A stretch of DNA of 64,000 bases from assembly GCF_004570345.1 (NCBI RefSeq), contig NZ_SPQM01000004.1, positions 1 to 64,000 on the forward strand, read 5' to 3'. Positions 8,141 through 29,741 of this stretch are shown here, piece after piece (the stretch's first letter is position 1; each line of letters opens with the position of its first letter). The notes beneath the pieces were generated by a model. It was not told where the DNA came from, made no database searches, and worked only from the letters and a program-made list of their open reading frames with translations. A program made the translations under genes and the position numbers. The DNA comes from Blastococcus sp. CT_GayMR20 (GTDB taxonomy: Bacteria; Actinomycetota; Actinomycetes; Mycobacteriales; Geodermatophilaceae).

Positions 8141-8309
8141 ACGCCGCCTGCCACACGGGTGGGATTTCGGCACGCAATCGACCGTTCAGGTCACGGACGG
8201 TGAGGCCTTGCCGCGCTGCGTCGTGGCGGTCGGTTGGCAGGGACAACAGGTCTTGTCGATGGCCTCCGCGACGGTCAGGGTCCGACTTCCTGAAGCCCTC
8301 GGGGGGAAC

Positions 8310-9551: not shown

Positions 9552-9689
9552 CGGCGGTGACCGGCGCCCTCGCGCGTCGGCATCCCCTGCCGCTCCCCTC
9601 GGCCACGGGCCGCCTCACCACGGCGTCCTTCTCCCCTTGCACCCCCGCGCTCGCGGACCCCCAGCGCATGCACGTCGAGGAACACTCAG

Positions 9690-11195
9690 ATGAGTTCAGC
9701 CAACTTCTCGCAGGACAGCCTGCTCCCGCTGAGAGCGGTGGCGGACGCCACGTCCGCCGTCAGCCGCGCGGCGCGCGGTGCCGGGGCACTCGAACGGCAC
9801 GCGTGGCGCGACGCCTACGTGAGCCGCCTCGTCCTCTTCGACCTCGGCTGCGCCTTGGTGGCCATCGCGGCGGCCTACCTGGTCCGCTTCGGGCCACCGG
9901 AGGCCTGGACGGCGCCCGCGACCCTCATCCTCACCGTCGCGCTCCCGGGTGTCTGGCTCCTCGCCCTGCTCCTCCTGCGCTGCTACGAGGAGAAGTTCCT
10001 GTGGGAGGGGATGGAGGAGTTCCGCCGGGTCATCGTCGCGGCCCTCCTGCTCCTGGGCGGCATCGCCCTGGTCTCGTGGGCTGCGGTCCTCGAGCTGTCC
10101 CGCGGCTTCGTCCTCGTCGCGCTGCCGCTGGCGACCGCGCTGACCCTGGTGCACCGCGGGCTGCAGCGGGAACGACTGCGCCGGCAGCGGGCGAAGGGGC
10201 GGTTCCTGCAGACCACGCTCCTCGTCGGCCGGCCCGAGGGCATCGCGGCGCTGCACGAGCAACTGCGGCGTGAGTCCCACTACGGCTACCGGGTCGTCGG
10301 CTGCTGCCTGCCCGCCACGGGGGCGGGCAGTCGGTCGTTCGACGGACTCCCGGTACTGGGAGGGCCGGACGACGTCGCCGACGTCGTCCGGCGGTTCGGC
10401 GTGGACACGGTGGCGGTCCAGCCCTCCCCCGAACTGGACGGCGCGGCGCTGCGCCACCTGGGCTGGGAGCTGGAGAAGGACCGGGCCAATCTCCTGCTCG
10501 CCCCCGCGGCGACCGAGCTGGTCGGACCGCGGTTCCGGATCCGGCCGGTTTGCGGGTTGTCCCTGCTGCAGATGGAACGGCCCGAGCTGCGGGGAGCCCG
10601 CCGCCTGGTCAAGTCGACGTTCGACCGCACGGGCGCGGCGGTGCTGCTCCTCCTGCTGGCCCCGGTCCTGGTCGCGAGCGCCCTGGCCGTGAAGCTCGAG
10701 AGCCCGGGACCGGTCTTCTTCAAGCAGCAGCGAGTGGGCCGCGACGGGCGGCTCTTCCCGATGGTGAAGTTCCGCAGCATGGAGGTCGGTGCCGATCGCG
10801 TGCTCGACCGGCTGGCGCCGATGAGCGACGGCAACGGGGTGCTGTTCAAGCTGGTCCGCGACCCGCGGGTGACCCGCGCCGGCAAGATCCTCCGGCGCTA
10901 CTCCCTGGACGAGCTGCCGCAGCTGTTCAACGTGCTGAAGGGCGACATGTCGCTGGTCGGCCCTCGTCCGCCCCTGCCGACGGAGGTGGCGAGCTACGGC
11001 GTCGACATGCGCCGGCGCCTCCTCGTCAAGCCGGGCCTGACCGGCCTGTGGCAGGTGAGCGGCCGCTCGAACCTCTCCTGGGACGAGTCGGTCCGTCTCG
11101 ACGTCCACTACGTGGAGAACTGGTCGCTGCTCCTCGACCTGATGATCCTGTGGCGGACCGTGGGCGCCGTGCTCCGCGGGGAGGGCGCCTACTGA
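9690..11195 (+). CDS. Polyprenyl glycosylphosphotransferase initiating exopolysaccharide synthesis (WbaP/CpsE type)
   Basis: A 501-residue large phosphoglycosyl transferase predicted to attach the first sugar-1-phosphate to undecaprenyl phosphate. Four N-terminal membrane helices (~45-160) are followed by a CoA-binding-like Rossmann domain (TTLLVGRPEGIAALHEQL... GLPVLGGPDDVADVV). A re-entrant helix (GAAVLLLLLAPVLVASALAVKL) leads into the catalytic domain: SPGPVFFKQQRVGRDGR, FPMVKFRSM, RRYSLDELPQLFNVLKGDMSLVGPRPPLP, KPGLTGLWQVSGRS. It is distinct from the small, single-domain transferase at 40668-41333, so the window encodes two initiating enzymes. Start ATG 9690. Confidence 0.9.
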   Translation: MSSANFSQDSLLPLRAVADATSAVSRAARGAGALERHAWRDAYVSRLVLFDLGCALVAIAAAYLVRFGPPEAWTAPATLILTVALPGVWLLALLLLRCYEEKFLWEGMEEFRRVIVAALLLLGGIALVSWAAVLELSRGFVLVALPLATALTLVHRGLQRERLRRQRAKGRFLQTTLLVGRPEGIAALHEQLRRESHYGYRVVGCCLPATGAGSRSFDGLPVLGGPDDVADVVRRFGVDTVAVQPSPELDGAALRHLGWELEKDRANLLLAPAATELVGPRFRIRPVCGLSLLQMERPELRGARRLVKSTFDRTGAAVLLLLLAPVLVASALAVKLESPGPVFFKQQRVGRDGRLFPMVKFRSMEVGADRVLDRLAPMSDGNGVLFKLVRDPRVTRAGKILRRYSLDELPQLFNVLKGDMSLVGPRPPLPTEVASYGVDMRRRLLVKPGLTGLWQVSGRSNLSWDESVRLDVHYVENWSLLLDLMILWRTVGAVLRGEGAY

Positions 11196-11310
11196 CTCTG
11201 CCGGGCGAGCGTCCGCGCAGGTGGCTACGGTCGTCGCAGGGATTGCCCGGGCGGTCGTCCGGGCAGTGCACGTCCGATGCACGCCAGGTCATCGAGGGAA
11301 AGAGGTCACC

Positions 11311-11859
11311 ATGCTGGTCCGCCGGATCGCCCGGCCGTTGCTCGCCGCCCCCTTCGTCTACGGCGGGATCAGCACCCTGCGCAAGCCGCAGGACCGCGTC
11401 CCGGGCGCGCGCCCGGTCGTGGAGAAGATCGCCGAGACGGCCGACAAGCAGCTGCCCGTCCAGGTGCCCCGCGACGTCCAGCAGTGGGTGCAGGCCGACG
11501 CCGCCGTCAAGGTCGCCGCCGGCGCCCTCTTCGGGCTCGGCAAGCTGCCCCGGCTGACCGCGCTGGTCCTGTCGGCCTCGGTCGTGCCGACGACGCTCGC
11601 CGGGCACCGCTTCTGGGAGCACACCGACCCGACCGAGCGCTTCGGGCAGATCTCGAACTTCCTGAAGAACGCCGGCCTGCTCGGTGGTCTGCTGCTCGCC
11701 GCCGTCGACACCGAGGGCAAGCCGTCGGTCGGCTATCGCGCCCGCCGGGCGGCCAAGAAGGCGGCCAGCTCGACCGAGAAGAGCTTCGAGAAGGCGCAGC
11801 AGCGCGCAGCCAAGGCCCAGAAGAAGGCCCAGAAGCGGGCGAAGAAGGCCAAGAGCTGA
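11311..11859 (+). CDS. DoxX-family membrane protein with Lys/Ala-rich tail
   Basis: A 182-residue protein with DoxX-like architecture: an N-terminal basic helix (RRIARPLLAAPFVYGGISTLRKP), then hydrophobic helices around VKVAAGALFGLGKLP, LTALVLSASVVPTTLAGHRFWE and AGLLGGLLLAAVDT. The final ~40 residues are a highly basic tail with repeated AKKA/QKKA/RAKKAKS units, resembling histone-H1-type tails. DoxX-like proteins are associated with redox or sulfur metabolism, but the specific role here is unknown. The start ATG 11311 follows GGGAAAGAGG with good spacing. The stop overlaps the probable start of the PHP gene. Confidence 0.75.
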   Translation: MLVRRIARPLLAAPFVYGGISTLRKPQDRVPGARPVVEKIAETADKQLPVQVPRDVQQWVQADAAVKVAAGALFGLGKLPRLTALVLSASVVPTTLAGHRFWEHTDPTERFGQISNFLKNAGLLGGLLLAAVDTEGKPSVGYRARRAAKKAASSTEKSFEKAQQRAAKAQKKAQKRAKKAKS

Positions 11860-12905
11860 GCACTCCGCTCCCGCCCGCGGCCGCGCTCCGGAGGATCGCC
11901 TTCCTCCTGGAGCGCGCCCGCGAGCCCAGCTACCGCGTCTCGGCGTTCCGCACGGCCGCCGCGGTGGTCGACGGCATGAGCGACGACCAGCTCGACCTGA
12001 AGATCCGCACGAACACGCTCAAAGACCTCAAGGGCGTCGGCCCGAAGACGGCGGCCGTCGTCGTCCAGGCGCACAAGGGCCAGGTGCCCGAGTACCTCGC
12101 GAAGCTGGAGGAGGCGCACGCCGAACTCGTCCCGATGGCGGACGACGTCGCGGAGTTCCGGGCCGCCCTGCGCGGCGACCTGCACACGCACTCGGACTGG
12201 TCCGACGGCGGCAGCCCGATCCGCGAGATGGCCGAGGCCGCGATGGCGCTGGGTCACGAGTACCTGGCGCTCACCGACCACTCCCCGCGGCTGACCGTCG
12301 CGAACGGGCTCTCCCCCGAGCGGCTGGAGAAGCAGCTCGACGTCGTGGCCGCCCTCAACGAGGAGCTCGCCCCGTTCCGGATCCTCACCGGCATCGAGGT
12401 CGACATCAACGTCGACGGCAGCCTCGACCAGACCGACGAGCTGCTCGGCCGCCTGGACGTCGTCGTCGCGAGCGTGCACTCCGACCTGCGCGCGGACGCG
12501 AAGAGCATGACCGCGCGGATGCTCACCGCGGTCGCGAACCCGCACACCGACGTCCTCGGGCACTGCACCGGCCGGCTGGTCATCGGACGGCGGCAGCGCG
12601 ACGGCACGCAGAAGCCCCGGCCGGAGAGTCAGTTCGACGCCGAGGCCGTGTTCAGCGCCTGCATCGAGTTCGGCACCGCCGTCGAGATCAACTCCCGCCC
12701 CGAGCGCCTCGATCCGCCGAAGCGGCTGCTGTCCCTCGCCGTCGACCTCGGCTGCGAGTTCGCCATCGACACCGACGCGCACGCCCCCGGTCAGCTGGAC
12801 TGGCAGTACAACGGCGTCGAGCGTGCGATCGAGACCGGGGTGCCGGTCGAGCGGGTCGTCAACAGCCGGACCGCCGACGATCTGCTCGCCTGGACCCGCG
12901 CGTAG
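11856..12905 (+). CDS. PHP-domain phosphoesterase with N-terminal helix-hairpin-helix
   Basis: A ~349-residue protein resembling the PolX C-terminal region. An N-terminal DNA-polymerase-beta-like helical segment with a helix-hairpin-helix (LKDLKGVGPKTAAVV) is followed by a PHP metallo-phosphoesterase domain. Its metal ligands are visible in GDLHTHSDWSDGG, ALTDHSPR, GIEVDIN, VVASVHSD, HTDVLGHCTGR and AIDTDAHAP. Likely acts on phosphoester or nucleic acid substrates, but the polymerase palm is absent. No ATG, GTG or TTG is available near the conserved N terminus. The best fit is CTG at 11856, overlapping the DoxX stop (CTGA) and preceded by GAAGAAGG seven bases upstream. Confidence 0.8.
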   Translation: MSTPLPPAAALRRIAFLLERAREPSYRVSAFRTAAAVVDGMSDDQLDLKIRTNTLKDLKGVGPKTAAVVVQAHKGQVPEYLAKLEEAHAELVPMADDVAEFRAALRGDLHTHSDWSDGGSPIREMAEAAMALGHEYLALTDHSPRLTVANGLSPERLEKQLDVVAALNEELAPFRILTGIEVDINVDGSLDQTDELLGRLDVVVASVHSDLRADAKSMTARMLTAVANPHTDVLGHCTGRLVIGRRQRDGTQKPRPESQFDAEAVFSACIEFGTAVEINSRPERLDPPKRLLSLAVDLGCEFAIDTDAHAPGQLDWQYNGVERAIETGVPVERVVNSRTADDLLAWTRA

Positions 12906-13118
12906 CTGTCCCGCTCGGCTGCACCGGCCTCCGCGCCGCCGTCGGGCCGGCCCACCCCCCTACGAGTGACGACAAGGACGTCGTCCGACGACGAAGATCC
13001 CTGCTCACAGCAGGAACGACCCAGTATCGGCACCGAGTCGTCTACGGCCGCCCCGCTGACGCGCAGCTGACGGACCGGTCTGGTCCGGGCGAGCGCGAGG
13101 TCATCTACGGGGAGAAGC

Positions 13119-15290
13119 GTGACAACCAAGACTGCCGCCGACTCGCAGGCGCGTCCTCAGGACGCTGCCGCCACCCGGCGGCCGAGCCACTTCCGGCGCG
13201 ACATCGAGGGTCTGCGGGCTGTCGCGGTCGGCCTGGTGCTCCTCGACCACGTGCTCGGCTGGCCCGCCGGGGGCTTCATCGGCGTCGACGTCTTCTTCGT
13301 CATCTCCGGCTTCCTGATCACCGGTCTGCTCGTGCGCGAGCGACGCAAGACCGGCGGGATCTCCTTCCGCGACTTCTACCGGCGCCGCGCCCGACGCCTG
13401 ATGCCGGCGGCCGTCGCCACCCTGGTCGTCACGAACCTGGCGATGTGGACGCTGTTCCTGGACTTCCGCGCGCTCCAGGCCACCAAGGACTCGATCTGGG
13501 CCCTGCTGTTCGGGGCGAACATCCGCTTCGCGCAGGTGGGCACCGACTACTTCCAGACCACGTCACCGCCCTCTCCGGTCCAGCACTTCTGGTCGCTGGC
13601 GGTCGAGGAGCAGTTCTACCTCGTCTGGCCGCTGCTCATCCTCGCCGTGTTCGCCGTGGCCGCCCGACGTCGGCGATCGGCGGTGCGGCTGCTGGGCGGG
13701 GTGGTGCTCGTCGCGGCCGCGGCCTCGTTCGCCTGGTCGGTGTACGCCACGGACGTCTCCGCCACCACGGCGTACTTCTCCACGTTCGCCCGGGCGTGGG
13801 AGCTCGCCGTGGGCGCGGCCGTGGCCCTGGCCGCGGCCCGGCTGCACCGGCTCCCGCACGCACTGCAGGTGGTCGGGGCCTGGGTCGGGCTGGCCGGTGT
13901 CATCGCCTCGGCATTCGTCATCGACGTGGCCACGCCGTTCCCGGGCTGGGCGGCCGCGCTCCCCGTCCTGTCCACCGCCCTGATCATCGCCTTCGGCCAC
14001 GTGCGACAGGGCCCGGGGACGACGTGGGCCCTCGGCAGCGGCGTGATGCGGTACCTCGGCCGCATCTCCTACTCGCTGTACCTGTGGCACTGGCCGGTCG
14101 TGGTGATCCTCCGGGACCTCTTCGCCGACTCCCCGGCCCTCTACTACCCGGCGGCGATCGGCGGCGCCCTGTTCCTGGCGAGCGTCTCCTACTACGTCAT
14201 CGAGCAGCCGGTCCTGCACTCGGGATGGCTGCTCGGCAAGGAACGTGACACGCCGATCCGAGGTTCGGATCGGGTGTTCCGCCGGGCCCGGGCGGTGGCC
14301 TTCGGGACGCTGCTGGCCGTCGGCGTGCCGGCGATCGCCCTCGGCGTGCTGTTCCCCCCGGGTCAGCTCAGCCCCCAGCAGGTCGCCGCCGCCGAGCTCG
14401 CCGTCGAGGTCTCGCCCGCCGGCGACTCGAGCGACGAACCGGCCGAGGACCCGCTGATCACCGAGATCCGCCAGTCGATCGGGGCGGCCACCTGGCCGAC
14501 CCTCGACCCGCCGCTCGAGCGGCTGTCCGGCGCCCGGGCGCCGGAGTGGGTCGACGACGAGTGCCTGAACGTCACGCCCTCGCGCGAGGACGAGTGCCGC
14601 TACGGTCCGGCGGACGCCGCGAGCACCGCCGTGCTGCTCGGCGACTCCGTCGCGATCAGCTGGCTGCCCGGACTCCGGGAGGCGATGGAGCCGAAGGGGT
14701 GGTCTATCCAGCCGCTCACGTTCGAGGAGTGCCCGAACATCGCCGCCGAGGTGAAGCACGGCACGAGCAGCTCGGCCTATCCGGAGTGCACCGAGCACCG
14801 GACGTGGGCGCTGCAGCGGATCGCCGAGCTCCGGCCCGACATGGTGATCCTGAGCAACTCCTACGGCGCCCAGCTCCTCGACGAGGACGCCGACGTCTAC
14901 TCCACCTGGGGCGACGGCCTGGAAGAGGTCGCCGGGCAGATCACGGCCACGGGGGCCAAGGTCGTCGTCCTGGGCATGCCGCCCAGTGGCAAGAGCCTGC
15001 AGGAGTGCGTCACCGCCATCAGCGACCCCAGCGACTGCAACGGCCCGCCCTCGGAGGAGTCGCGCCGCCACATCCGCGTGGAGAAGGCGGGAGCCGAGGC
15101 CGCCGGAGCCACGTACGTGGACCCGACGCCGTGGTTCTGCTTCCGGAACACCTGCCCGGCGGTCGTGGGGAGCACCCCGGTGTTCAGCGAGGGTGTGCAC
15201 CTGACCCCGCAGTACTCCCGGAAGCTGGCTCCGCAGCTGGAGAGGTCGCTGCTGGGCGACCCGGCGGCGCCTGCATCTCCGGCAGGTTGA
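13119..15290 (+). CDS. Membrane O-acyltransferase with C-terminal SGNH domain (OafA type)
   Basis: A 723-residue protein. Residues ~25-375 form the acyltransferase-3 membrane domain with about ten helices: DIEGLRAVAVGLVLLDHV carries the conserved His near the N terminus, and GFIGVDVFFVISGFLITG, RRARRLMPAA and HFWSLAVEEQFYLVWPL follow. One further helix (~395-415) leads to an extracytoplasmic SGNH hydrolase domain. Its nucleophile is Ser510 in LLGDSVAISW and its catalytic His about 694 in SEGVHLT. Such proteins O-acetylate wall or capsular polysaccharides: the membrane part passes the acyl group and the SGNH domain transfers it. Start GTG 13119 after GGGGAGAAGC. Fits the surrounding polysaccharide genes. 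Confidence 0.9.
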   Translation: MTTKTAADSQARPQDAAATRRPSHFRRDIEGLRAVAVGLVLLDHVLGWPAGGFIGVDVFFVISGFLITGLLVRERRKTGGISFRDFYRRRARRLMPAAVATLVVTNLAMWTLFLDFRALQATKDSIWALLFGANIRFAQVGTDYFQTTSPPSPVQHFWSLAVEEQFYLVWPLLILAVFAVAARRRRSAVRLLGGVVLVAAAASFAWSVYATDVSATTAYFSTFARAWELAVGAAVALAAARLHRLPHALQVVGAWVGLAGVIASAFVIDVATPFPGWAAALPVLSTALIIAFGHVRQGPGTTWALGSGVMRYLGRISYSLYLWHWPVVVILRDLFADSPALYYPAAIGGALFLASVSYYVIEQPVLHSGWLLGKERDTPIRGSDRVFRRARAVAFGTLLAVGVPAIALGVLFPPGQLSPQQVAAAELAVEVSPAGDSSDEPAEDPLITEIRQSIGAATWPTLDPPLERLSGARAPEWVDDECLNVTPSREDECRYGPADAASTAVLLGDSVAISWLPGLREAMEPKGWSIQPLTFEECPNIAAEVKHGTSSSAYPECTEHRTWALQRIAELRPDMVILSNSYGAQLLDEDADVYSTWGDGLEEVAGQITATGAKVVVLGMPPSGKSLQECVTAISDPSDCNGPPSEESRRHIRVEKAGAEAAGATYVDPTPWFCFRNTCPAVVGSTPVFSEGVHLTPQYSRKLAPQLERSLLGDPAAPASPAG

Positions 15291-15318: not shown

Positions 15319-18300
15319 TCAGAGGGCCGTGCTCGTGTGACCGGTGAACACGAATCCGGCCCACGCGTCCGTTCCCCCGAAGTCGCGGCCGTCGGGCTCC
15401 AGAGCGCTCAGCTCTGCGTCCAGGAGGCGGTGGGCTGCATCCGGCACCCGCCCGTCCGCGCGCATCCGCCGCAGTCGGTTGCGCAGCTCCACATTCGTGG
15501 CGTCGCGCATCTGATCCTGGGCGTCGGCGAGTGCCGCAGCCGGGTCCTGGCCGAGTGTCGGCTGACCGTAGAGCAGGGTGACGAGAATCAAGGTCGACAG
15601 ATCCGGAACCTGCCACAAGGACGAGATGACGCCATCTACTCCGGCGGCGAAGAACGTCGAGCCCAGGGCGATGACTTCGTCGGGCGCCCCGGCGCCGGGG
15701 ACACCGGTCTCGCACGCAGACAGGACAGCTAGACGCACGGCGCTGAGGTCCATGCCGGCGAGCCGTTCGACGGTGAGCATGGCGTCATCGCGAAGCACGA
15801 CTCCACTCGCGCTCGGTCGAAAGAGGTCGGCGCGGCCATGACAGGCGATGTGCACCGTGCGGTGCGTCGGCAGCGCCTCGAGCACTGCGTCGAGCGTGGC
15901 CTGAGTGCCGGGAAGTAGCAGGGCACCGTCTGCCCCCGCCGCGGCCACCGCCACCGCCGCCTCCGCAGCCGCGAACGGCAGCGCCGGCTCGCTGGTGGGA
16001 TGGGGGTCGACGATTGCGAGAACCGTGCTGGGCCCGGCAGGGGTCGGTTGCCGTCGGGCGGTGACGACGGACAGCGCGGTGGGGGCGTACTCCACCACAT
16101 GCTTGCCGACGAAGCTCCACTCCCCCGCGACCGTGCGTGCGGCGTGCACCGGGAGAAACGCCAGCGCGCCCGTGGGAACGACGGTCAATCGGCCGGGAGG
16201 CAGAGCGGCCACGGCTGGCGAGATCGCCTCACCGAGCCATGCACCGATGCGGTCCAGCGTGCGCTGCCACGCCTTGGGGTTCGCCGACGCCCCGGTGGCC
16301 GCCATGTGGAGCGCCCGCGCCCGCCCTCCGACCGCCTCCTCGCTCAGGCCTGCCAGTTCCACTGTCGTCACGTTGCGCCCGGCCGGGTCGATGAGCAGAC
16401 CGAGCCCGTCACCCGGAGCCGGCACGAGGTAGAGCAGGGGCTGCGTCATCGCCGATGCGACGACCTCGAACCCGACCCCGGCCAGTGCCGCACTCTGCGA
16501 CCCCCTGCTCAGAGAATCGAGCAGGAGCAGCCCGCGCGCCCGCTCCAGAGCCATGACGGCCTCCTCGGCGCGGCCACACCGGGTCAGCGCTTGCGCGGCT
16601 CGGGTCGCGACGCCAAAGCCTTCGGCCAGCCAGTTCTCCTTCGCGGAGACGGCCCGGTTTCCCTCGACCAGGTCGCGCAGGGCCCCGATCGCGGCGCCGT
16701 ACGCGGTGGCGGCGGACTCCCAGTCCTCGACCGCCGCCGCCCGATGTCCCCAGTCCCAGGCAACGCGCAGCTGGGCTTCCGGGGACGAGTTCGAGGCCCA
16801 CCTGACGGCGCGTGCACTCCAGCGGGCCGCCCGACGGAGCTCGGACGACCTGACGGACTCCGATCCCCGCCGCAGGGCGCGGCGTTGAACGGCGGCCGCG
16901 AGCTGGTTCGCTGCATAGACCCGGTTGGGAAGGGTGCGTTCGAGATGGCGGACGGCGACGCACAGCAGGCGGATCGACTCCTCGATGGCCTCCCCGTCGT
17001 CCCCGAGACGCAGCAGGGCCATCCCGAGGTTGAGGGACGCCACACCCCGCTGAATCGGCGCATCGAGCGCGAGCACCTGGCGCCAGTCCAACATCGCCGC
17101 CTCGAGATCTGCGAGGTCTGAGGACCTTTTCCAGAGATCGTCGCGGACCGAGGCCCGGATGCTCAGTGCCGCAGCCAGCGTCTCGGGATCGGTTCCGACG
17201 GCGAGGGAAACCGCCTCCTCTGCCATGCGTCGGGCGGTGGCGAGATCTTCGCCGTCAGGAAGGCGCTGCGCTCGCATGCGGAGTGCGGCGATGGAGTTGC
17301 TCAGCGTGCGCACGCGCTGCTCGGGGGGCGCCTCGCCGGACTCGCCGACCGCGTCCAGCGACGCCGCAACCGCGGCACTGAGCGCCTCGAGATCTCCGTA
17401 CGTCTCGTAGTAGAGCAACAGGAGTGCACCCACCGAACTCCACGCGGTCGCTCGGTCGAGCTTGTCGATGCCTGGCTGGTTCACGGCCGTCCGTGCCGCA
17501 TCGAGAGCGACATCGAGATCCGTCCTGTTCCCTCGCGCGACGAAGCGCTCGTACAGGGCCACAGCGAGTTCGTTGCTGCGCCTGCTGAGCGCTGGTCCGT
17601 CGTCCAGAGCAACCGCGGCGCGCAGGAGCGAGATGCGCACATCGAGTCGCCGGTCGGGCTCCAGACCGGACGCGGGCTCGACCACGGCACCGGCCAGCCC
17701 GTGGAGCCGCTCCGCCACTGCGCGGGCCTCGGGGTCACCAGTGAGCCGGCGCAGTGCCTCGACCCCGAGATCGACAAGATCCGAGGCGCGGCGGCTCACC
17801 TCCGGCTCGAGCGCGTCCAGCAGCCGGGCAGCCACGGAACCGGCCCCCGGCTCGATCATGGTGTTCGTCGCCGAGACGACGTCGTCGAGGCTCCCCCGCT
17901 CGATGTAGCGGGCCAGCAGGGCGGTGGCCAGCCCGGCGCGGACCTCCGGCGGCACGGGCTCCGCCTCCGCCAGCGCTCGCTGGAAGGCCTCGGTGGCGAC
18001 GTCCAGCCAGGAGGGTGACGGTGCCTGCAGGGACGCCAGATGGCCGGTCCAGGCAGCCCGACCTCGCAGCTCGAGAGCCCGTACCCGGAGGCTCGTCCCC
18101 GGCGGCTCGGCCGCCGCGACCTCGCTGAGCTGAGTCGCTACCTGCTCGAGCGAGTCAGGGCCCTCGTACCCCATGAGGACCGCGGCCTCGAGTTTCCAGG
18201 CCGGGAAGTCCGGAGCCGACGGATGGGTGAGGCCTAGCGTGCCGTCCAACAGGGTCTTGGCTCGTTGGAGATCAGCGGGCTGGCCGAAGACGTCGTAGCG

Positions 18301-18915
18301 CTGCCTGAGCGCTACGGCGAGCCGCCCGGCGAACCGGGACAGGCGAGGATCGAGATGCAGGCGGCAGTGCGTCGGCCGGGCGTCGTCGCTACGGAAGGCC
18401 GCGAAGACCTGCTCGAGCAGACCGATCAGGTGATCCAAGGTCTGCGGATCCGGCCGCTCGACGAGCGCCGCATCGTGCAGCGCCACACCGTCGCTCAGTA
18501 GGCTGAGCCGCAGTGCGGTCGGCAAGCGCTCGAGCCGGTCGGACATCGCCTCGGTGATCCACGCCTCCTCGGCCTGGAACAACGCCTCGGCGTCGCCTCC
18601 CAGCCATCCGGCGAACGCTGTGTCGATGCCGGCCAGTCCTGGCGCGAGGTCAGCGGGCGCGGCCTCGCGAAGCGCTCGGGCGTGGGTCGCGAACGCCTGC
18701 TCGACGCCACGCGCCGCAGCCGACGACAGCGCCTCGGCGAGACTCCGGTGTGCGTCGGCGCCAGCCACGTCACCCGAGGACTCGTCGAGCGTGGCCCACG
18801 CCTGGAGGCCGGCCGCGGCGCCTGAGAGCGAGAGCAGCATGGGCAGGTCGTGCCACGTAGTGACGTCGCGCGCTACGCACAGGTCAGGATGCGAGAGCGC
18901 CAGTGGCGCACTCAT
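15319..18915 (-). CDS. TPR-CHAT protease, last gene of the three-gene operon
   Basis: A 1198-residue protein. Roughly residues 30-830 are alpha-helical repeats of tetratricopeptide character (many Ala/Leu-rich helix pairs such as AVMALERARGLLLLDSLSRG). The C-terminal ~330 residues are a CHAT domain, a caspase-fold cysteine peptidase: VEYAPTALSV, then catalytic His1026 in HIACHGRADL and Cys1068 in AVLSACETGVPGAG, followed by GSTFFAAGVDGVISSLWQVPD. The helical part would sense or bind a partner, the CHAT part cut a target protein. Its ATG overlaps the stop of the hydrolase gene (ATGA). CHAT proteins act in bacterial conflict and programmed-death systems, which is the basis for that suggestion here. 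Confidence 0.9.
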   Translation of the reverse strand: MSAPLALSHPDLCVARDVTTWHDLPMLLSLSGAAAGLQAWATLDESSGDVAGADAHRSLAEALSSAAARGVEQAFATHARALREAAPADLAPGLAGIDTAFAGWLGGDAEALFQAEEAWITEAMSDRLERLPTALRLSLLSDGVALHDAALVERPDPQTLDHLIGLLEQVFAAFRSDDARPTHCRLHLDPRLSRFAGRLAVALRQRYDVFGQPADLQRAKTLLDGTLGLTHPSAPDFPAWKLEAAVLMGYEGPDSLEQVATQLSEVAAAEPPGTSLRVRALELRGRAAWTGHLASLQAPSPSWLDVATEAFQRALAEAEPVPPEVRAGLATALLARYIERGSLDDVVSATNTMIEPGAGSVAARLLDALEPEVSRRASDLVDLGVEALRRLTGDPEARAVAERLHGLAGAVVEPASGLEPDRRLDVRISLLRAAVALDDGPALSRRSNELAVALYERFVARGNRTDLDVALDAARTAVNQPGIDKLDRATAWSSVGALLLLYYETYGDLEALSAAVAASLDAVGESGEAPPEQRVRTLSNSIAALRMRAQRLPDGEDLATARRMAEEAVSLAVGTDPETLAAALSIRASVRDDLWKRSSDLADLEAAMLDWRQVLALDAPIQRGVASLNLGMALLRLGDDGEAIEESIRLLCVAVRHLERTLPNRVYAANQLAAAVQRRALRRGSESVRSSELRRAARWSARAVRWASNSSPEAQLRVAWDWGHRAAAVEDWESAATAYGAAIGALRDLVEGNRAVSAKENWLAEGFGVATRAAQALTRCGRAEEAVMALERARGLLLLDSLSRGSQSAALAGVGFEVVASAMTQPLLYLVPAPGDGLGLLIDPAGRNVTTVELAGLSEEAVGGRARALHMAATGASANPKAWQRTLDRIGAWLGEAISPAVAALPPGRLTVVPTGALAFLPVHAARTVAGEWSFVGKHVVEYAPTALSVVTARRQPTPAGPSTVLAIVDPHPTSEPALPFAAAEAAVAVAAAGADGALLLPGTQATLDAVLEALPTHRTVHIACHGRADLFRPSASGVVLRDDAMLTVERLAGMDLSAVRLAVLSACETGVPGAGAPDEVIALGSTFFAAGVDGVISSLWQVPDLSTLILVTLLYGQPTLGQDPAAALADAQDQMRDATNVELRNRLRRMRADGRVPDAAHRLLDAELSALEPDGRDFGGTDAWAGFVFTGHTSTAL

Positions 18916-19796
18916 CCGAGCAGAGCGTCGTGGATCCTCTTAGCCACCACGCGATCGGAGAGATAGCCGGAGATGCCGTGCTGGTTCGGGGTGCCGTTGT
19001 CGACTCCGCCGTAGTTCTCCACCTCTGGCTGGACCGGGAAATGCCCAGGGTCGAGCGGGTGCAGCGCCACGACATCGTGCTCGTCGTAGGCGTTGAACCA
19101 GTCGATGACACCCTCCGGCCTGCTTACGGGAGCCAACGCTTCCACGACCGGACGGACGCCCAACGGGGACCCCACCGTGATGAGGCTCGGTACGGTCCAC
19201 TTCTCGGCGGCGGCCCTCCGCTGCAGCACGTTGTAGGCGATGACCGAACCGAGGGAGTGACCGACGACCACGCACTCTTCGGCGTCCGCGAAGGCCTCCA
19301 GCACACCCTGCTCGATCCGGGTCTGGATTCCAGGGCTGTTGAGATAGTCGTAGACGTCGCGGGTGGCCAAGGCCAAGGTTGCTGCGCCGGCGCCGGGAAC
19401 CTTCTCGATGACCCGCAGGGCAGCAAGGACCCAGGGCCAGTTCTGCGGTCCCATCTCCACAAGCTCGCCGTCCGGCATGTGCGCTCTGATGTCCTCGTCG
19501 CTGATGTTGTATGTCGCGACAGCGTCCTCCACGACCGCTCCGAGGAAGGCCTTCTCCGCGGCGTCCGCGTCCCCCGCGCTCTGGATGACGACCTGGGCCG
19601 AGACCGCCTCCGGGTCTGCCGACAGATCTCTCAAGGCGTCGCCGTAGAAGGGGAAACGGACCGAGTCCTCGAGGACCTTCAACTCGAGGTCTGCACGGCG
19701 GAATCCCTCCTGGAGGGCGTCCAGCCACTGCAACTTGAGCTGCTCGTCCCTCCGTCCCTGCTGGGAACGGCCGTGGACGAACACCAGGGTTCGCAT
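18912..19796 (-). CDS. Alpha/beta hydrolase, middle gene of caspase-CHAT operon
   Basis: A 294-residue predicted serine hydrolase. It opens with strand LVFVHGRSQQG, giving an HG oxyanion motif. The nucleophile elbow is VVVGHSLGSVIAYNV with Ser181. LITVGSPLGVRP resembles lipase/thioesterase-type proteins, FNAYDEHDVVALHPLDP offers the acid residue, and NQHGISGYLSD offers the catalytic histidine. No signal peptide, so probably cytosolic. Its ATG at 19796 shares one base with the caspase gene stop (TGATG), and its stop overlaps the CHAT start, so all three are translationally coupled. It could be an effector lipase/esterase or an amidase activated by the proteases. The substrate is unknown. The frame is open upstream to 20345 but that part lies antisense-like within the caspase gene. 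Confidence 0.8.
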   Translation of the reverse strand: MRTLVFVHGRSQQGRRDEQLKLQWLDALQEGFRRADLELKVLEDSVRFPFYGDALRDLSADPEAVSAQVVIQSAGDADAAEKAFLGAVVEDAVATYNISDEDIRAHMPDGELVEMGPQNWPWVLAALRVIEKVPGAGAATLALATRDVYDYLNSPGIQTRIEQGVLEAFADAEECVVVGHSLGSVIAYNVLQRRAAAEKWTVPSLITVGSPLGVRPVVEALAPVSRPEGVIDWFNAYDEHDVVALHPLDPGHFPVQPEVENYGGVDNGTPNQHGISGYLSDRVVAKRIHDALLG

Positions 19797-21418
19797 CAGA
19801 GGCTTCCTTCCGTGTCGATGTACTCCCGGAGTTGCTCGAAGCTCCCCGGACCGAACAAGGTCCATGGAGATTGCACCCGCCGCGGAACAGCAGGCCGGTC
19901 GGCGATGCCATCCGCCCCCAGCAGCGCCCACCCGCGGGAGAGGAGCGGCAGTGGGGGGACTGGCGGGGCGGTGAGGTCCTCGGCAAGCAGCGCCACGTCG
20001 AAAGGCGTCTCGCCGTCCTCGGTCATGGCGAGCAGTTGCGGCAAGAGATCCCGCCGACCGCTGTCGACCAGGCCATACGCGACGTAGACCGCAAAGGCAG
20101 GATCGTCTCGAACAGCCGGCCGCCAAGTGCCCAGGGCGCCGGCCGGTGGATACTCCTGCCACCAAGGGACACCGAACCGGGTGGTCCCCGCTATTCGCGC
20201 CCGGACCGCATCGAATGCATCGCCCATTGGCTGCGTCGCCGGTTCCGCGCTCGACGACACCGGTCTGTAGCGGACGTCCACCAGCACGCCCTCCTCCAGA
20301 GTCAGCGTTGCGGTTCGCCCACGGAAGACGGGGAGGACGGCGCATCGGCCCGTGGAGAAGGACAACAGCATCGAGCCGGCCTGGGCATCGTCGGGCAGGA
20401 GCACCTGGACGCCGCCGCCTTCCGCTTCCCAGAGAATGCCCGCGCTGTAGACGCTGACGAGGTCGTCACCGACGACGTGCAGGGCCGCCGAGATCTCAAC
20501 CTCCGGCGGTGGGCGCATCTGCACGAGACGCCCTTCGGCCTTCGCTGCCGCGCTCTCCGCTGGGGCCACGACCCTCCGGAGGCGCATGATCCAGTCCACA
20601 ACTGCCGGGCCACGGCGACCGGGGGACTCCGGCGGCGCCTCGAGCCGTGACACCCACCGGTCGGGATCGGACACGATGGCCGCGTCGGGAACCTGTATGA
20701 CCGCGTCCGCTGTGCCCAGCTCGTCCATCCGGGAGGCGACGAGGGCGGGAAGTGCCCGGCTCAGGGTCCGCGCTCGCACGACGTCGTACGACTCTTGCCC
20801 CATGTCGACGCGTTCCAGGAGGTCCGCGTAGTCCCCGGCGAGTGCCTCTGCCACCACCTCCGAATAGACCGGGCGGAACCCGGTCGGGTCCGTCGAGGGA
20901 GCAATCTGCCTGGCTACTTCAGCCAGTCGGCACGCATACATGAAGTCGACCTCATTGCGACGACCCACGTTGAGAGGACTGGGGAAGATCACCGAGCCAT
21001 CCATGTCGCTCATCTGCACGGTCGTCGTGGCGGAACGACACGCATCGGAGATGAATACGACGTGCGGAATCGTGCCGCGCTCAGCCAGCCGCCTGCTCTT
21101 CTCGAGGTTGACTGCCTCGTTGGGGTTCTGCGGGGCGCCGGACAGGAGCCACATGTCGCCGTCGTTGTAGACGCCGTGTCCGCAGAAGTAGACGATCAAC
21201 TGCCTGACGGTCAGCAGGCGCGTCAGCTTGTCCACAGCGTTGTAGACGTCGACGGTTCTTACCGGCTCCCCGTCCGTGTCGGTCAACGTGATGACGAGCT
21301 CGTCCGGAAGACTCTGCGTCCTGGCCCATTCCTGCATGGCCTTGATGCCATCGGGCACAGCAGGAAGCTCCGGAAGACCGGACTTCTGCACGCCGATCAA
21401 CAGCACAGCGCGGTCCAT
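19796..21418 (-). CDS. Caspase-family (C14-like) cysteine peptidase, first gene of operon
   Basis: A 540-residue protein. Residues 1-~250 are a caspase/metacaspase-like domain: strand RAVLLIGVQKSGLP, LPDELVITLTDTDG, catalytic His81 in LIVYFCGHGVYNDGDMWLL and Cys127 in HVVFISDACRSATT. The C-terminal ~290 residues match nothing I recognise. They comprise a probably beta-rich segment (ALHVVGDDLVSVYSAGILWE through TLTLEEGVLVDVRYRP) and a helical end (FAVYVAYGLVDSGRRDLLPQLL), a candidate sensor or substrate-binding module. Start ATG 21418 with GGGGGGCGT just upstream. Likely initiator protease of the operon with the hydrolase and TPR-CHAT downstream; that order of action is inference. Confidence 0.85.
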   Translation of the reverse strand: MDRAVLLIGVQKSGLPELPAVPDGIKAMQEWARTQSLPDELVITLTDTDGEPVRTVDVYNAVDKLTRLLTVRQLIVYFCGHGVYNDGDMWLLSGAPQNPNEAVNLEKSRRLAERGTIPHVVFISDACRSATTTVQMSDMDGSVIFPSPLNVGRRNEVDFMYACRLAEVARQIAPSTDPTGFRPVYSEVVAEALAGDYADLLERVDMGQESYDVVRARTLSRALPALVASRMDELGTADAVIQVPDAAIVSDPDRWVSRLEAPPESPGRRGPAVVDWIMRLRRVVAPAESAAAKAEGRLVQMRPPPEVEISAALHVVGDDLVSVYSAGILWEAEGGGVQVLLPDDAQAGSMLLSFSTGRCAVLPVFRGRTATLTLEEGVLVDVRYRPVSSSAEPATQPMGDAFDAVRARIAGTTRFGVPWWQEYPPAGALGTWRPAVRDDPAFAVYVAYGLVDSGRRDLLPQLLAMTEDGETPFDVALLAEDLTAPPVPPLPLLSRGWALLGADGIADRPAVPRRVQSPWTLFGPGSFEQLREYIDTEGSL

Positions 21419-21683: not shown

Positions 21684-24888
<3,205 letters not shown>

Positions 24889-25002
24889 ACCCACCTCCCC
24901 CACGGCTTCCGAGGCCTCGCTACGAGTGGATCACGCTCGAATGTCCTCCGCAGGTCAACGAGCGCCGCTGCACCGCAGCACAGTTGCATCCAGATCCCGC
25001 CG

Positions 25003-25059
25003 AAATTTTTCCAAAGACCAGGAGTGAACAACGGCACTCCGGGGCATAACGGGCCGTTA
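25003..25059. promoter_or_regulatory. AT-rich segment and palindrome between divergent genes
   Basis: Inside a 239-base intergenic region. GAAATTTTTCC at 25003-25013 is unusually AT-rich for this DNA. TAACGG-G-CCGTTA at 25047-25059 is a perfect palindrome. Likely promoter and operator for the dehydrogenase operon (leftward) and/or the small membrane protein gene (rightward). No binding protein identified. Confidence 0.4.
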
Positions 25060-25127
25060 ACGGAACAACCACCTACTTCGCATCCCCCGGGACCGACAGG
25101 TGCCGGGCAGTCACGAGGATCGGGCAG

Positions 25128-25481
25128 ATGACCTGGGTCGTGGTCGCAGCGGTGAGCTGGGTGGTCGTCGGCGCCGTCGTCGCCCTGATCATCGGTCGCT
25201 CCGTCCGCCTGGCGGACGCCAGAGCCGCCGCGGCCTCTGAGGCCGGCGCGGCCCTCACCGCGGCGGACGAGGAGTTCCTGTCGCGGCCTGAAGCCGTCAC
25301 CGCGGGCGAACCGGTGCAGCCACCGCGACCGCCGGCGGAACGTCCCCGAGGCGGCATCCACGAGACCGCCCATGGTCACGGCGGGGCCGGCCTTCCGCCC
25401 ACTCGGCGCACGAGGCCCACGCAACAGCGCGTCCCCCTGGTGGGGCAGCCGGCGAGCGCCCGGAAGCACGGACGGTCCTGA
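25128..25481 (+). CDS. Small single-helix membrane protein with GR-x-R-x-AD motif
   Basis: A 117-residue protein. It has one N-terminal membrane helix (WVVVAAVSWVVVGAVVALIIG), then GRSVRLADARAAAASE, then a polar, low-complexity Pro/Arg-rich tail. The helix end plus GR-x-(V/I/M)-R-x-AD recurs in two other proteins of this window (27006-27956 and 29742-29927). ATG 25128 follows GAGG. It lies upstream of the LCP gene. Function unknown; the tail is probably cytoplasmic and disordered. Confidence 0.6.
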   Translation: MTWVVVAAVSWVVVGAVVALIIGRSVRLADARAAAASEAGAALTAADEEFLSRPEAVTAGEPVQPPRPPAERPRGGIHETAHGHGGAGLPPTRRTRPTQQRVPLVGQPASARKHGRS

Positions 25482-25593
25482 ACCGGCTGCCGGGACGCTG
25501 AGCGAGCCTCACCCGGGCGGGTGGCAGCCACCCGCCGCCTGAGCTGCACACACGTACCCTCGAACCGACAGTTCGGCAGACGGGGGTCCGGCC

Positions 25594-26682
25594 ATGCGCA
25601 GCGACGACGCGGGGGTTTCCGCGCGCCCCGGGCCGGACGACCTGCCCGACACGAATGCGCCGGAGCGCTCTCGCCGCCGCCATGTCCTGCGCAGGGCCCT
25701 CATCAGCCTCGGCGTCCTGAGTCTCGTCCTGGCCGTCGCCATCGGCGGTGGGCTGTGGTTCCTCAGCGAGCGGTACGTCGGGAACATCGACCGCATCGCG
25801 AACGTCTTCGAGGACCTGGACGAGGAGGCCCGCCCCGCGCCGGCGACTCCCGCGGCCCCGGTGGCCGAGGAGCCGGTGACGTTCTTGCTCATCGGCTCGG
25901 ACACGCGTGGGGAGACGCTGGCCGGTGAGGATCCGGACGGCCGATCGGACGCGATCATGCTGGCCCGCTTCAGCGGCGACCGGCAGCACGCGCAGCTGGT
26001 GTCCATCCCTCGGGACTCGTGGGTCGACATCCCCGGCCACGGCCGCAACAAGATCAATGCCGCGTACGCGTTCGGTGGCCCCACCTTGTTGATCCAGACC
26101 ATCGAGCAGCTCACCCAGGTGCGCATCGACCACTACGTGGCGATCGACTTCGACGGCATCACCCAGGTGACCGACGACCTCGGCGGCGTCGACGTGATGG
26201 TCGCGGAGACGACGACGCACGGTCCGTACACCTTTCCTGCTGGCATGAACCACCTCAACGGTGACCAGGCGCGCTGGTACCTCGGGCAGCGCTACGGCCT
26301 GGAGGGCGGCGACTTCGACCGGGTGAAGCGCCAGCAGCAGTACCTGCGCTCGATGTTCAGCAAGCTGTTCAGCGCCGACACGTTCACCGACCCGGGTCGG
26401 CTGGACTCGGCGATGATCGCCGTCACCAGCGCCGTGAGCATCGACGACACCCTCGGCAACGGCGACCTGCTCGCCCTCGCCTATTCGATGCGGAACGTGA
26501 CGCCGGAGAACGTCGAGTTCTTCACCGCGCCGGTGCTGGGCACCGGCATGGAGGGTCCGGCCAGCGTGGTCTACCTCGACATGGTCACCGCTGAGCGCAT
26601 GTGGACCTACCTGCGCACCGACTCGCTCGCGGCGAACGCGGCCGAGTTCGGAAACCAGGCGCTTCCCGACGTGCCTCGCTGA
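25594..26682 (+). CDS. LytR-CpsA-Psr (LCP) family cell-wall glycopolymer ligase
   Basis: A 362-residue protein with a basic cytoplasmic N terminus (ERSRRRHVLRRA) and one membrane helix (~34-56). The extracellular LCP domain covers ~93-260: VTFLLIGSDTRGE, GRSDAIMLARF, VSIPRDSWVDIPGHGRNKINAAYAFGG, and DHYVAIDFDGI. The conserved Arg and Asp residues that bind the polyprenyl pyrophosphate are present in SDTR, RSDA and PRDS. LCP enzymes move undecaprenyl-linked polysaccharide onto peptidoglycan, so this is a good candidate for attaching the polymer made by the neighbouring locus. A C-terminal ~80 residues of unknown role follow. Start ATG 25594. Confidence 0.93.
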   Translation: MRSDDAGVSARPGPDDLPDTNAPERSRRRHVLRRALISLGVLSLVLAVAIGGGLWFLSERYVGNIDRIANVFEDLDEEARPAPATPAAPVAEEPVTFLLIGSDTRGETLAGEDPDGRSDAIMLARFSGDRQHAQLVSIPRDSWVDIPGHGRNKINAAYAFGGPTLLIQTIEQLTQVRIDHYVAIDFDGITQVTDDLGGVDVMVAETTTHGPYTFPAGMNHLNGDQARWYLGQRYGLEGGDFDRVKRQQQYLRSMFSKLFSADTFTDPGRLDSAMIAVTSAVSIDDTLGNGDLLALAYSMRNVTPENVEFFTAPVLGTGMEGPASVVYLDMVTAERMWTYLRTDSLAANAAEFGNQALPDVPR

Positions 26683-26712
26683 GCGGCGCTGCCGTGCGCA
26701 GCACCGACGGCG

Positions 26713-26913
26713 TTACGCGGGCTGGAAAACCTGAGCGTTCGCCTTCGCGCCGCACGCTTGGCACCGGTGGTAGCTGCGAACAACGGGACGCCACCGCGGG
26801 TTGAGTCGGTCGAGTCCGGTCCGCAACTGCGTCGATTCCATGACGACGACGTGGTCGCTGGCACACAGGCCGCACGGCTGGTCACTCGTCCCGATCTGCG
26901 CTCGACGCCACAT
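26713..26913 (-). CDS. Small zinc-ribbon protein
   Basis: A 66-residue basic protein with two CxxC knuckles: CGLCASD near the N terminus and CQACGAKA near the C terminus. The spacing and the linker (STQLRTGLDRLNPRWRPVVRSYHR) are consistent with a zinc ribbon. Start is ATG 26913; TTG 26931 is possible. Unknown function; might bind nucleic acid or act as an adaptor. Kept despite its size because the cysteine pattern is unlikely in a shadow frame. Confidence 0.5.
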   Translation of the reverse strand: MWRRAQIGTSDQPCGLCASDHVVVMESTQLRTGLDRLNPRWRPVVRSYHRCQACGAKANAQVFQPA

Positions 26914-27005
26914 ACGGTCAGGATGCCTCAACAGAGTGTCAACGGATCGATAGCCGAGGTGTGTCTGCGACGTCCTGGGTCGTCAGTGACTGTTGCAGTG
27001 CGACG

Positions 27006-27956: not shown

Positions 27957-28087
27957 CCGTTCCGCCGAACCTCGACACGCGCGGCCGGTCGTGGGTCGTG
28001 GGCACTGGAAACCTCACGGATCCCAAGCGTCGCGCGCGACCGTCCTCGCCGACCGGTGTTTGTCCGGACGCCAAGACGGAGGTGGGC

Positions 28088-28819: not shown

Positions 28820-28934
28820 GGCGGGAGAGGCTATGGGACAAATGGTGCCTATGGGGTTCCGGTCGCTCCGCTGATTTCGACGAGAGCCAGATCCGCCGGC
28901 CTGCAGGTAACCAGCAGATACCGCCCGTGAGCGG

Positions 28935-29630: not shown

Positions 29631-29741
29631 CGTCCGGTCGGCCTACCCCGCAGGGTGACCAGTGACGAGCCGTTCCGTTCGGCAGGTTCTGCCTGCGTGG
29701 CGAACGGTGGGACGGCTGCCTCGCTCCGTAGAACTACCGAC

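What the first reader, a model, noticed from the sequence alone, without database searches (positions are those of the whole stretch)
15319..21418. Coupled caspase - alpha/beta hydrolase - TPR-CHAT operon: candidate conflict or cell-death system
Three genes overlap by 1 and 4 bases, so they are made together. Two encode caspase-clan cysteine proteases with intact His/Cys dyads (His81/Cys127; His1026/Cys1068) and the middle one a serine hydrolase with GHSLG. The caspase has a ~290-residue C-terminal region and the CHAT protein ~800 residues of helical repeats that could sense a trigger. A plausible model is a protease cascade that activates the hydrolase, which then attacks lipids or another cell component to kill or arrest an infected cell. 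I know of CHAT and caspase modules in bacterial immunity, but not of this exact three-gene arrangement.
Basis: partly seen in the sequence, partly recalled or inferred. Interest (0 to 1): 0.85.

Follow-up and report, generated by a model that had tools for sequence, protein, structure and literature searches.

The report
Caspase-gated lipase-like pair with CHAT protease
Three overlapping bacterial genes encode a caspase, a lipase-like enzyme and a second caspase-like protease, and co-evolution across many bacteria suggests that the caspase cuts its partner enzyme at two exact spots, which would be a directly testable bacterial protease switch.

Summary
In detail: caspase (21418-19796), alpha/beta hydrolase (19796-18912) and CHAT protease (18915-15319), minus strand, overlapping by 1 and 4 bases, catalytic residues intact. 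The conserved unit is the caspase-hydrolase pair: 75 of 80 genome loci carry the caspase just 5' of the hydrolase (three of the other five have little or no upstream sequence), and some proteins fuse both. CHAT genes lie near the pair more often than expected (6 of 40 loci tested, 0.20 expected). The pairing was reported by Kaur et al. 2020 inside VMAP systems; here it mostly stands alone. New here: two hydrolase positions (72, 115) carry matched V-x-x-[R/K]-G motifs that change together to Q, M or A, the strongest of 41,051 column pairs. Caspase residue 171, probably the counterpart of MALT1's Arg-selecting Glu500, is Glu with R/K sites and mostly Gln or Met with others, but this rests on about three independent changes. 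Best reading: the caspase switches the hydrolase by cutting two loops; the window's lineage moved from Arg/Lys to Gln/Met. Cutting, activation, lipid target and the CHAT's role are inferred. Defence is plausible but untested; a coarse neighbour test gave no clear enrichment.

The parts
19796..21418 (-). Caspase-family (paracaspase-like) protease gene, 540 aa
20639..21418 (-). Caspase catalytic domain, residues 1-260
   Evidence: Aligned range to MALT1 and caspases
21176..21178 (-). Catalytic His81 codon
   Evidence: Invariant in 65 aligned caspases
21038..21040 (-). Catalytic Cys127 codon (Asp125 two residues before it is also invariant)
   Evidence: Invariant in 65 aligned caspases
20906..20908 (-). 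Gln171 codon: probable S1-pocket residue, Glu in most relatives, Gln in this lineage
   Evidence: Associated with the residue at hydrolase position 72; equivalence to MALT1 Glu500 is inferred, not superposed
20261..20488 (-). Eight-stranded beta domain, residues 311-386; possibly Ig-like, not proven
   Evidence: Secondary structure of the model
19985..20224 (-). Helical C-terminal part, residues 399-478
   Evidence: Model
18912..19796 (-). Alpha/beta hydrolase gene, 294 aa, lipase/phospholipase-like fold
19578..19583 (-). Putative cleavage site 1: Gln72-Ser73, in the low-confidence loop 62-74
   Evidence: Motif V-[IV]-V-[R/K]-G in relatives; co-varies with site 2; loop pLDDT below 50
19449..19454 (-). 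Putative cleavage site 2: Met115-Gly116
   Evidence: Motif V-[VI]-E-[R/K]-G in relatives; co-varies with site 1
19254..19256 (-). Nucleophile Ser181 of GHSLG
   Evidence: Invariant in 44 hydrolases
18978..18980 (-). His273 codon, probable catalytic His
   Evidence: Invariant in 44 hydrolases
15319..18915 (-). CHAT protease gene, 1198 aa; ~880 residues before the CHAT domain are probable helical repeats
   Evidence: PF12770 9e-45; a profile with its relatives matches Craspase TPR-CHAT chains
15340..16263 (-). CHAT protease domain, residues 885-1192
   Evidence: Pfam
15838..15840 (-). CHAT catalytic His1026
   Evidence: Invariant in 11 aligned CHAT proteins
15712..15714 (-). CHAT catalytic Cys1068
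   Evidence: Invariant in 11 aligned CHAT proteins

Best explanation
The core is a two-gene protease-hydrolase switch. The paracaspase-like caspase cuts its partner lipase-like hydrolase after one residue in each of two loops (positions 72 and 115 in the window numbering), and this turns the hydrolase on, probably by freeing its active site. The active hydrolase then attacks a lipid or ester target and kills or arrests the cell. In this lineage a CHAT protease made from the same operon acts upstream as sensor and trigger of the caspase. Shown here: gene coupling, intact catalytic residues, pairing across phyla, two co-varying cleavage-like motifs, and a caspase residue that is associated with them. 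Inferred: cutting itself, activation rather than inactivation, the lipid target, the CHAT's place in the cascade, and a role in immunity or programmed death.
For: Pairing: caspase on the same strand 5' of the hydrolase in 75 of 80 loci, median gap 3 nt, 57 of 75 at 10 nt or less, largest 281 nt; of the other five, L008, L020 and L045 have 97, 205 and 756 bases upstream, L072 has an LRR-Roc-COR-EAD11-CHAT protein there, L027 has nothing recognised. Fusions of both in one polypeptide: L013, L109, P0131, P0140, P0147. Sites: of 201 hydrolases both sites are K/R in 164, both other in 28, mixed in 9. Columns 72 and 115 rank 1 of 41,051 column pairs by corrected mutual information in 153 sequences below 80% identity (z 12); the same residue stands at both in 112 of 153 against a shuffled mean of 61, maximum 77. 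On the tree, of 6 independent basic/non-basic changes at 72, 115 goes the same way in 5.3 and the opposite way in 0; 0 of 400 control column pairs reach that share. In the 164 K/R pairs P1' is Gly in 99% and 92% and P4 is most often Val; over all 201 the next best column shows [K/R]-G in 31%. Both K/R together occur in 0 of 15 more distant hydrolases without a caspase or CHAT neighbour by profile and in 0 of 11 putative trypsin fusions. Pocket: in 95 pairs, residue 171 is Glu in 74 and Gln in 0 with K/R at 72, and Gln in 13, Glu in 3 with another residue there; five pairs have Met, Ala or a gap at 171. Of 3 independent changes of 171 the site goes the same way in 2.7, opposite in 0. The fold is MALT1-like and MALT1 uses Glu500 among the residues that hold P1 Arg (PMC4357240, passages). 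Loop 62-74 is the only stretch of the hydrolase model below pLDDT 50. Relatives of the hydrolase are also fused to trypsin (Pfam-confirmed in L082, L164, L191), overlap a caspase-nSTAND1-WD40 gene (L193), or sit beside CHAT genes without a caspase (L072, L220).
Against: No cleavage was measured. The window's copy has neither basic residue (Gln72, Met115), so its sites rest on the co-variation argument. Counted from site 115 the tree test is weaker: 9 independent changes, 5.0 same way, 0 opposite, 4.0 no difference at 72, a share of 0.56 that the best control equals (0.557). R/K exchange at 72 is matched at 115 in only 5.4 of 12 independent changes. Sign tests are not significant (median p 0.06). 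Exceptions at residue 171: L041 (Met/Gln) and L046 (Met/Met) keep Glu, L078 has Tyr/Lys with Glu, L073 Arg/Ala with Glu, L159 Ala171 with Arg/Arg, L217 Ala171 with Gln/Gln. With 3 independent changes of 171 the test cannot be significant (median p 0.25). Seen from the site's 5 changes, 171 agrees in 2.4, and 11 of 466 caspase columns, all more variable, score higher. L027 keeps both R-G sites although no caspase was found beside it, and five of the 15 unpaired relatives keep R-G at site 1. Nothing here tells activation from inactivation, and PADLOC neighbours show no clear enrichment.
Confidence: 0.6

Rival explanations
1. The caspase cuts the hydrolase at the two sites to inactivate or remove it; the hydrolase is a normal envelope-lipid enzyme and the caspase is its off-switch.
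For: Co-variation speaks for recognition, not for its consequence. The window operon sits among cell-surface polysaccharide genes.
Against: No such neighbourhood is conserved in the loci compared; distribution is patchy and includes plasmids, unlike a core lipid enzyme. The precedents Canu and Hachiman are activations (PMC12799240, passages).
Confidence: 0.16
2. Positions 72 and 115 are coupled because they touch each other or bind one ligand such as a lipid head group, not because a protease reads both.
For: Coupled columns are often structural contacts; other top pairs here (237-263, 240-272) may be of that sort. L027 keeps both sites with no caspase found beside it.
Against: P1 varies among R, K, Q, M and A while P4 Val and P1' Gly or Ser stay, which suits protease subsites better than a contact; loop 62-74 has low confidence in the model; the double basic site is absent in 15 of 15 distant unpaired relatives, in loose alignments; caspase residue 171 is associated with it.
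Confidence: 0.18
3. The pair and trio are not immune systems but a developmental or stress cell-death module.
For: PADLOC matches near the pair show no clear excess over control regions (29 against 21 families over 120 genes each).
Against: Patchy occurrence (5 of 186, 24 of 396, 1 of 394 and 2 of 385 genomes, with differing queries and thresholds), conjugative plasmids, and relatives beside EAD, STAND and VMAP genes (L047, L072, L188, L193).
Confidence: 0.35
4. The CHAT gene is only a neighbour and has no part in the caspase-hydrolase switch.
For: It was not found within 10 kb in 72 of 80 loci, some with short flanks, and the CHAT proteins near other pairs are only 20-28% identical to the window's.
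Against: Overlapping stop and start in the window; CHAT directly 3' on the same strand also in L034 and L073; 6 of 40 loci hold a CHAT gene against 0.20 expected.
Confidence: 0.2

Closest known systems
Caspase plus alpha/beta-hydrolase pair of VMAP (MoxR-vWA) ternary systems, Kaur et al. 2020 (PMC7159879)
   Same: Caspase-superfamily domains there always have a neighbouring alpha/beta-hydrolase gene, read as operating together (passages)
   Different: There the caspase belongs to VMAP systems with MoxR and vWA; here, of 41 genomes with the pair, 4 had VMAP-C and none of those on the pair's contig. The word CHAT does not occur in that paper's main text; cleavage sites are not in the passages read.
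Canu, caspase-nuclease defence (PMC12799240)
   Same: Caspase with MALT1-like structure; partner pro-enzyme with two disordered insertions; proteolytic activation (passages)
   Different: The partner is an MBL-fold nuclease there and an alpha/beta hydrolase here; conserved Gly sites there, P1-Gly pairs with an associated caspase residue here
Hachiman HamM and AVAST nuclease-protease pairs (PMC12799240)
   Same: Partner enzyme with two disordered insertions, each with a cleavage-site residue (passages)
   Different: Trypsin-like protease and nuclease; different folds
Craspase TPR-CHAT (Csx29) and SAVED-CHAT
   Same: CHAT protease domain; a profile with the window's protein finds Craspase chains; SAVED-CHAT acts in a proteolytic cascade (PMC11229360, passage)
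   Different: Csx29 model 32.5 bits against a cut-off of 300; no type III CRISPR family was matched in the 16 window ORFs scanned
EACC1-associated caspases
   Same: Caspase domain match, NCBIfam NF047832 E 2.9e-8
   Different: 33.5 bits against a cut-off of 140
MALT1 paracaspase
   Same: Nearest solved fold; Asp two before the catalytic Cys; a residue at the probable L5 place
   Different: That residue is Gln, not Glu, in the window lineage; the beta domain 311-386 is not proven to be Ig3-like

Membership tests
Peptidase family C14 (caspase/paracaspase-like) | Caspase fold | tested here: met
Peptidase family C14 (caspase/paracaspase-like) | His-Cys dyad | tested here: met
   His81/Cys127 invariant in 65
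Peptidase family C14 (caspase/paracaspase-like) | Acidic S1 pocket for basic P1 (subfamily C14B) | tested here: inconclusive
   Asp125 invariant; residue 171 Glu in 77 of 93 but Gln in the window
Lipase-like alpha/beta hydrolase | G-x-S-x-G nucleophile with conserved acid and His | tested here: met
   Ser181, Asp238, Asp241, His273 invariant in 44
Lipase-like alpha/beta hydrolase | Lipid substrate | not testable with these tools
   Only fold similarity to PLA2/LCAT/lipases
VMAP ternary system | VMAP gene in the operon | tested here: not met
   VMAP-C in 4 of 41 genomes, none on the pair's contig; none among the 16 window ORFs scanned with Pfam
VMAP ternary system | Caspase next to an alpha/beta hydrolase | tested here: met
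   75 of 80 loci
Canu | MBL-fold nuclease partner | tested here: not met
   Partner is an alpha/beta hydrolase
Canu | Ig-like domain after the caspase | tested here: inconclusive
   A beta domain at 311-386 is predicted but was not searched alone
Csx29 (Craspase TPR-CHAT) | NCBIfam Csx29 cut-off | tested here: not met
   32.5 against 300 bits
CHAT protease | PF12770 and His/Cys dyad | tested here: met
   9e-45; dyad invariant in 11
EACC1-associated caspase | NF047832 cut-off | tested here: not met
   33.5 against 140 bits
Anti-phage defence system | Protection against phage | not testable with these tools
   No experiment
Anti-phage defence system | Enrichment among known defence genes | tested here: inconclusive
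   120 neighbours against 120 control genes, PADLOC E 1e-15: 29 against 21 families, none in more than 3 members (25 of the 29 were shown); the call tallies families, not proteins

The most novel reading that the evidence does not exclude
A widespread bacterial caspase-activated lipase: a paracaspase-like protease opens a pro-hydrolase by two matched cuts, the caspase pocket and the two sites co-evolve as lock and keys, and in the window's lineage the code has switched from Arg/Lys to Gln/Met while a CHAT protease was added upstream, giving a three-tier proteolytic death cascade.
Probability: 0.43. Interest if true: 0.85.

Novelty: new variant of a known kind. Interest (0 to 1): 0.71.

Why it matters
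Bacterial caspases are numerous, yet for few is a substrate known (recalled). Here comparative sequence names a likely substrate, two bonds in it and a caspase residue that seems to read them, so the prediction can be tested with two purified proteins. If true it adds a lipase-type effector to the protease-gated enzymes of bacterial cell death and offers a natural series of protease specificity changes.

Tried and rejected
Defence-island enrichment: six genes nearest the pair at 20 of the 80 loci (120 genes) against six genes from each of 20 control stretches about 45-100 kb away on the same contigs. PADLOC at E 1e-15 gave 29 families near the pair (strongest: a JetC-like protein, a NERD-UvrD protein, each in one member; mad3 and a UvrD-type model in two) and 21 in the controls (ShosA, Mko and PDC-S37 models in one member each, mad3 in three). 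A coarse test; no clear enrichment.

A third conserved gene: clustering of neighbours within 9 genes found families shared at a fixed place only among close relatives (Cellulomonas-type, Bradyrhizobium, Achromobacter loci); those in 6 or more loci were otherwise scattered.

VMAP membership: not met in the 41 genomes tested. A distant hydrolase does sit in a VMAP and MoxR-type operon of one Streptomyces genome (L188), with no caspase matched there.

A self-cleavage site in the caspase linker: the window has R-R-G there, but the linker is barely alignable and no conserved site was found.

Caspase column 79 looked linked to R against K. For the basic/non-basic change it ranks only 220 of 466; its R/K link was not tested on a tree.

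Absence from a list of folds is not used as evidence.

Phage-collection matches were two records of one Acinetobacter entry; the one inspected has chromosomal-looking genes and no caspase match in 10.9 kb.

Full report
What is there. Three genes on the minus strand overlap by 1 and 4 bases: a 540-aa caspase, a 294-aa alpha/beta hydrolase and a 1198-aa CHAT protein. Catalytic residues are intact and invariant among aligned relatives. The proteins come from a record of 96,822 bases. The right part of the window is an inverted copy of itself, 43 mismatches in 15,589 mirrored positions compared around the centre of that length; the record is probably a palindromic assembly artefact. The trio lies left of about 32,800, where the mirror partner is outside the window.

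The conserved unit is a pair. Of 80 genome loci found through the hydrolase (the best 80 of 429 confirmed), 75 carry the caspase on the same strand 5' of it, median gap 3 nt, 57 of 75 at 10 nt or less, nine over 100 nt, largest 281. Of the other five, L008, L020 and L045 have 97, 205 and 756 bases upstream, L072 has an LRR-Roc-COR-EAD11-CHAT protein in that place, and L027 has no caspase by profile or tblastn. L013 and L109 and proteins P0131, P0140 and P0147 hold both domains in one frame. Organisms named span Actinomycetota, Pseudomonadota, Bacteroidota, Planctomycetota, Gemmatimonadota and Acidobacteriota. In 41 of these genomes searched whole at E 1e-30, 38 have one match, G784 two strong ones, G002 and G798 each a second weaker one. 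Occurrence is patchy: 5 of 186 genomes in the family and 24 of 396 in the order of the Knoellia genome at E 1e-15, 1 of 394 in the class of the Amycolatopsis genome with P0005 at E 1e-45, 2 of 385 in the class of the Roseibium genome at E 1e-30, 79 of 199 Streptomyces at the loose E 1e-10, most of them distant forms. Plasmids carry it: 46 of 72,556 records have a hydrolase match, and five of those inspected have the caspase (L083, L084, L221-L223; also L225).

Other protease partners. Among 30 Streptomyces loci returned, 10 have the hydrolase domain at the end of a 540-790-aa frame with a trypsin-type motif; trypsin was confirmed by Pfam in L164, in L191 (the same protein as L160) and in plasmid locus L082. 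In L193 the hydrolase gene overlaps a caspase-nSTAND1-WD40 gene. In Sinorhizobium fredii it precedes an annotated CHAT gene, with no caspase matched. Fifteen more distant hydrolases in the Knoellia order (34-43% identity) show no caspase or CHAT match among the four genes on either side. So a protease partner is the rule for the close family, not for the whole superfamily.

The CHAT partner. Within 10 kb a CHAT gene was found in L001, L011, L017, L019, L034, L040, L073 and L078, 8 of 80 loci, some with short flanks; it lies directly 3' on the same strand in L034 and L073, as in the window. For 40 of the 80 loci the whole genomes were searched: 71 CHAT matches in all, and 6 of the 40 loci hold one against 0.20 expected (Poisson 8e-8; 2e-6 for five if the sister loci L017 and L019 count once). 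Close full-length relatives of the window's CHAT are three (P0222-P0224, 47-49%).

Two co-varying sites. Looking for protease-site-like residues in the hydrolase I found [R/K]-G at 72-73 and 115-116. Among 201 hydrolases the commonest pairs are RG/RG 103, KG/KG 21, RG/KG 20, QS/QG 8, KG/KD 6, KG/RG 6, AG/AG 3, QS/MG 2, MG/MG 2; both K/R 164, both other 28, mixed 9. The set holds some near-duplicates; below 80% identity 153 remain, where 72-115 is the top of 41,051 pairs more than five columns apart (z 12), and the same letter stands at both in 112 of 153 (shuffled mean 61, maximum 77). The surroundings read alike, V-[IV]-V-P1-G and V-[VI]-E-P1-G; where P1 is Q, M or A, P4 stays mostly Val and P1' Gly or Ser. 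On a hydrolase tree built without these columns, 6 supported independent basic/non-basic changes at 72 go with 115 in 5.3 and against it in 0; counted from 115, 9 changes go with 72 in 5.0, against in 0, and leave it unchanged in 4.0 (median p 0.06 each). R/K exchanges at 72 agree in 5.4 of 12, disagree in 0.1. Of 400 control column pairs, coded by their two commonest residues, none reaches the 0.88 share seen from site 72 (median 0.095), while the best (0.557) equals the 0.56 seen from site 115. In loose alignments, both sites are K/R in 0 of 15 distant unpaired relatives (five keep R-G at site 1) and in 0 of 11 putative trypsin fusions; the CHAT-partnered L072 has RG/RG, and so has L027, which lacks a caspase.

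A caspase residue follows. In 95 caspase-hydrolase pairs, caspase position 171 is Glu in 74 and Gln in 0 with K/R at 72, and Gln in 13, Glu in 3 with another residue there; five have Met, Ala or a gap (Fisher 3e-13). An Agrobacterium pair and, read by eye, two Sinorhizobium meliloti pairs with Met or Leu sites have Met171. Relatedness inflates the Fisher figure: on the tree 171 changed at least three times, the site going the same way in 2.7 of 3, never opposite, which cannot be significant. Seen from the site's five changes, 171 agrees in 2.4 and ranks 12 of 466 columns, the 11 above being more variable. In MALT1 the P1 arginine pocket is made by Asp365, Asp462 and Glu500, the last on loop L5 (PMC4357240, passages). 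Position 171 follows the strand after the catalytic-Cys strand in the model, so I equate it with Glu500; that is inference, not a superposition.

Mechanism. The simplest account is that the caspase reads and cuts both loops and that the hydrolase is held back by them, as reported for HamM and proposed for CanC, whose two disordered insertions gate the enzyme (PMC12799240, passages). The order CHAT, caspase, hydrolase is inferred from the operon and from cascades such as SAVED-CHAT (PMC11229360, passage). The window's lineage (window, P0005, P0010, the Knoellia relatives) has Gln, Met or Leu at P1 and Gln171, so its caspase should prefer an uncharged P1, not Arg.

Against. No cleavage data; exceptions L041, L046, L073, L078, L159, L217; the orphan L027; no sign of activation rather than inactivation; no clear PADLOC enrichment; the window operon lies among envelope polysaccharide genes, although such a neighbourhood is not conserved in the other loci.

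Novelty. Kaur et al. 2020 reported that caspase-bearing VMAP systems always have an alpha/beta-hydrolase neighbour, and a related hydrolase in GAP1-N1 systems (passages and one section), so the pair is known. By titles and abstract beginnings, the listings show no paper on cleavage of such a hydrolase; most subscription papers and all bioRxiv preprints are outside that library. I therefore file it as a new variant of the known protease-gated effector kind.

Noticed in passing
window 32823-64000: Inverted self-copy around about 48,411, 43 mismatches in 15,589 mirrored positions; the 96,822-base record is probably a palindromic assembly artefact.
   Followed up: partly
window 6704-15290 and 21684-30934: Cell-surface genes around the trio: PAP2-DAGK protein, sugar transferase, AT3-SGNH acyltransferase, RmlD and epimerase-type genes, UDP-sugar dehydrogenases, LytR-CpsA-Psr.
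   Followed up: no
window 30014-30934: A second UDP-sugar dehydrogenase-type gene (306 aa) whose N-terminal NAD domain matches only the last third of the profile.
   Followed up: no
L160-L164, L166-L169, L171, L082: Streptomyces proteins with a trypsin-type motif before the hydrolase domain; a second protease-hydrolase partnership.
   Followed up: partly
L072:1379-4840: LRR-Roc-COR-EAD11-CHAT protein directly 5' of the hydrolase in a Saprospiraceae genome; that hydrolase has both R-G sites.
   Followed up: partly
L027: Cellulomonas hydrolase gene with no caspase beside it but with both R-G sites kept.
   Followed up: partly
L030:5405-7633: Trypsin fused to a DNA/RNA non-specific endonuclease on the opposite strand directly 5' of the caspase in Cellulomonas; L065 has an unscanned 696-aa gene in the same place.
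   Followed up: no
L220:3495-5500: Hydrolase followed by a short annotated CHAT gene on a Sinorhizobium fredii conjugative plasmid, no caspase matched.
   Followed up: no
phages record CAKLQH020000003.1: Labelled Acinetobacter phage but carries chromosomal-type genes such as gltX and cusA.
   Followed up: no
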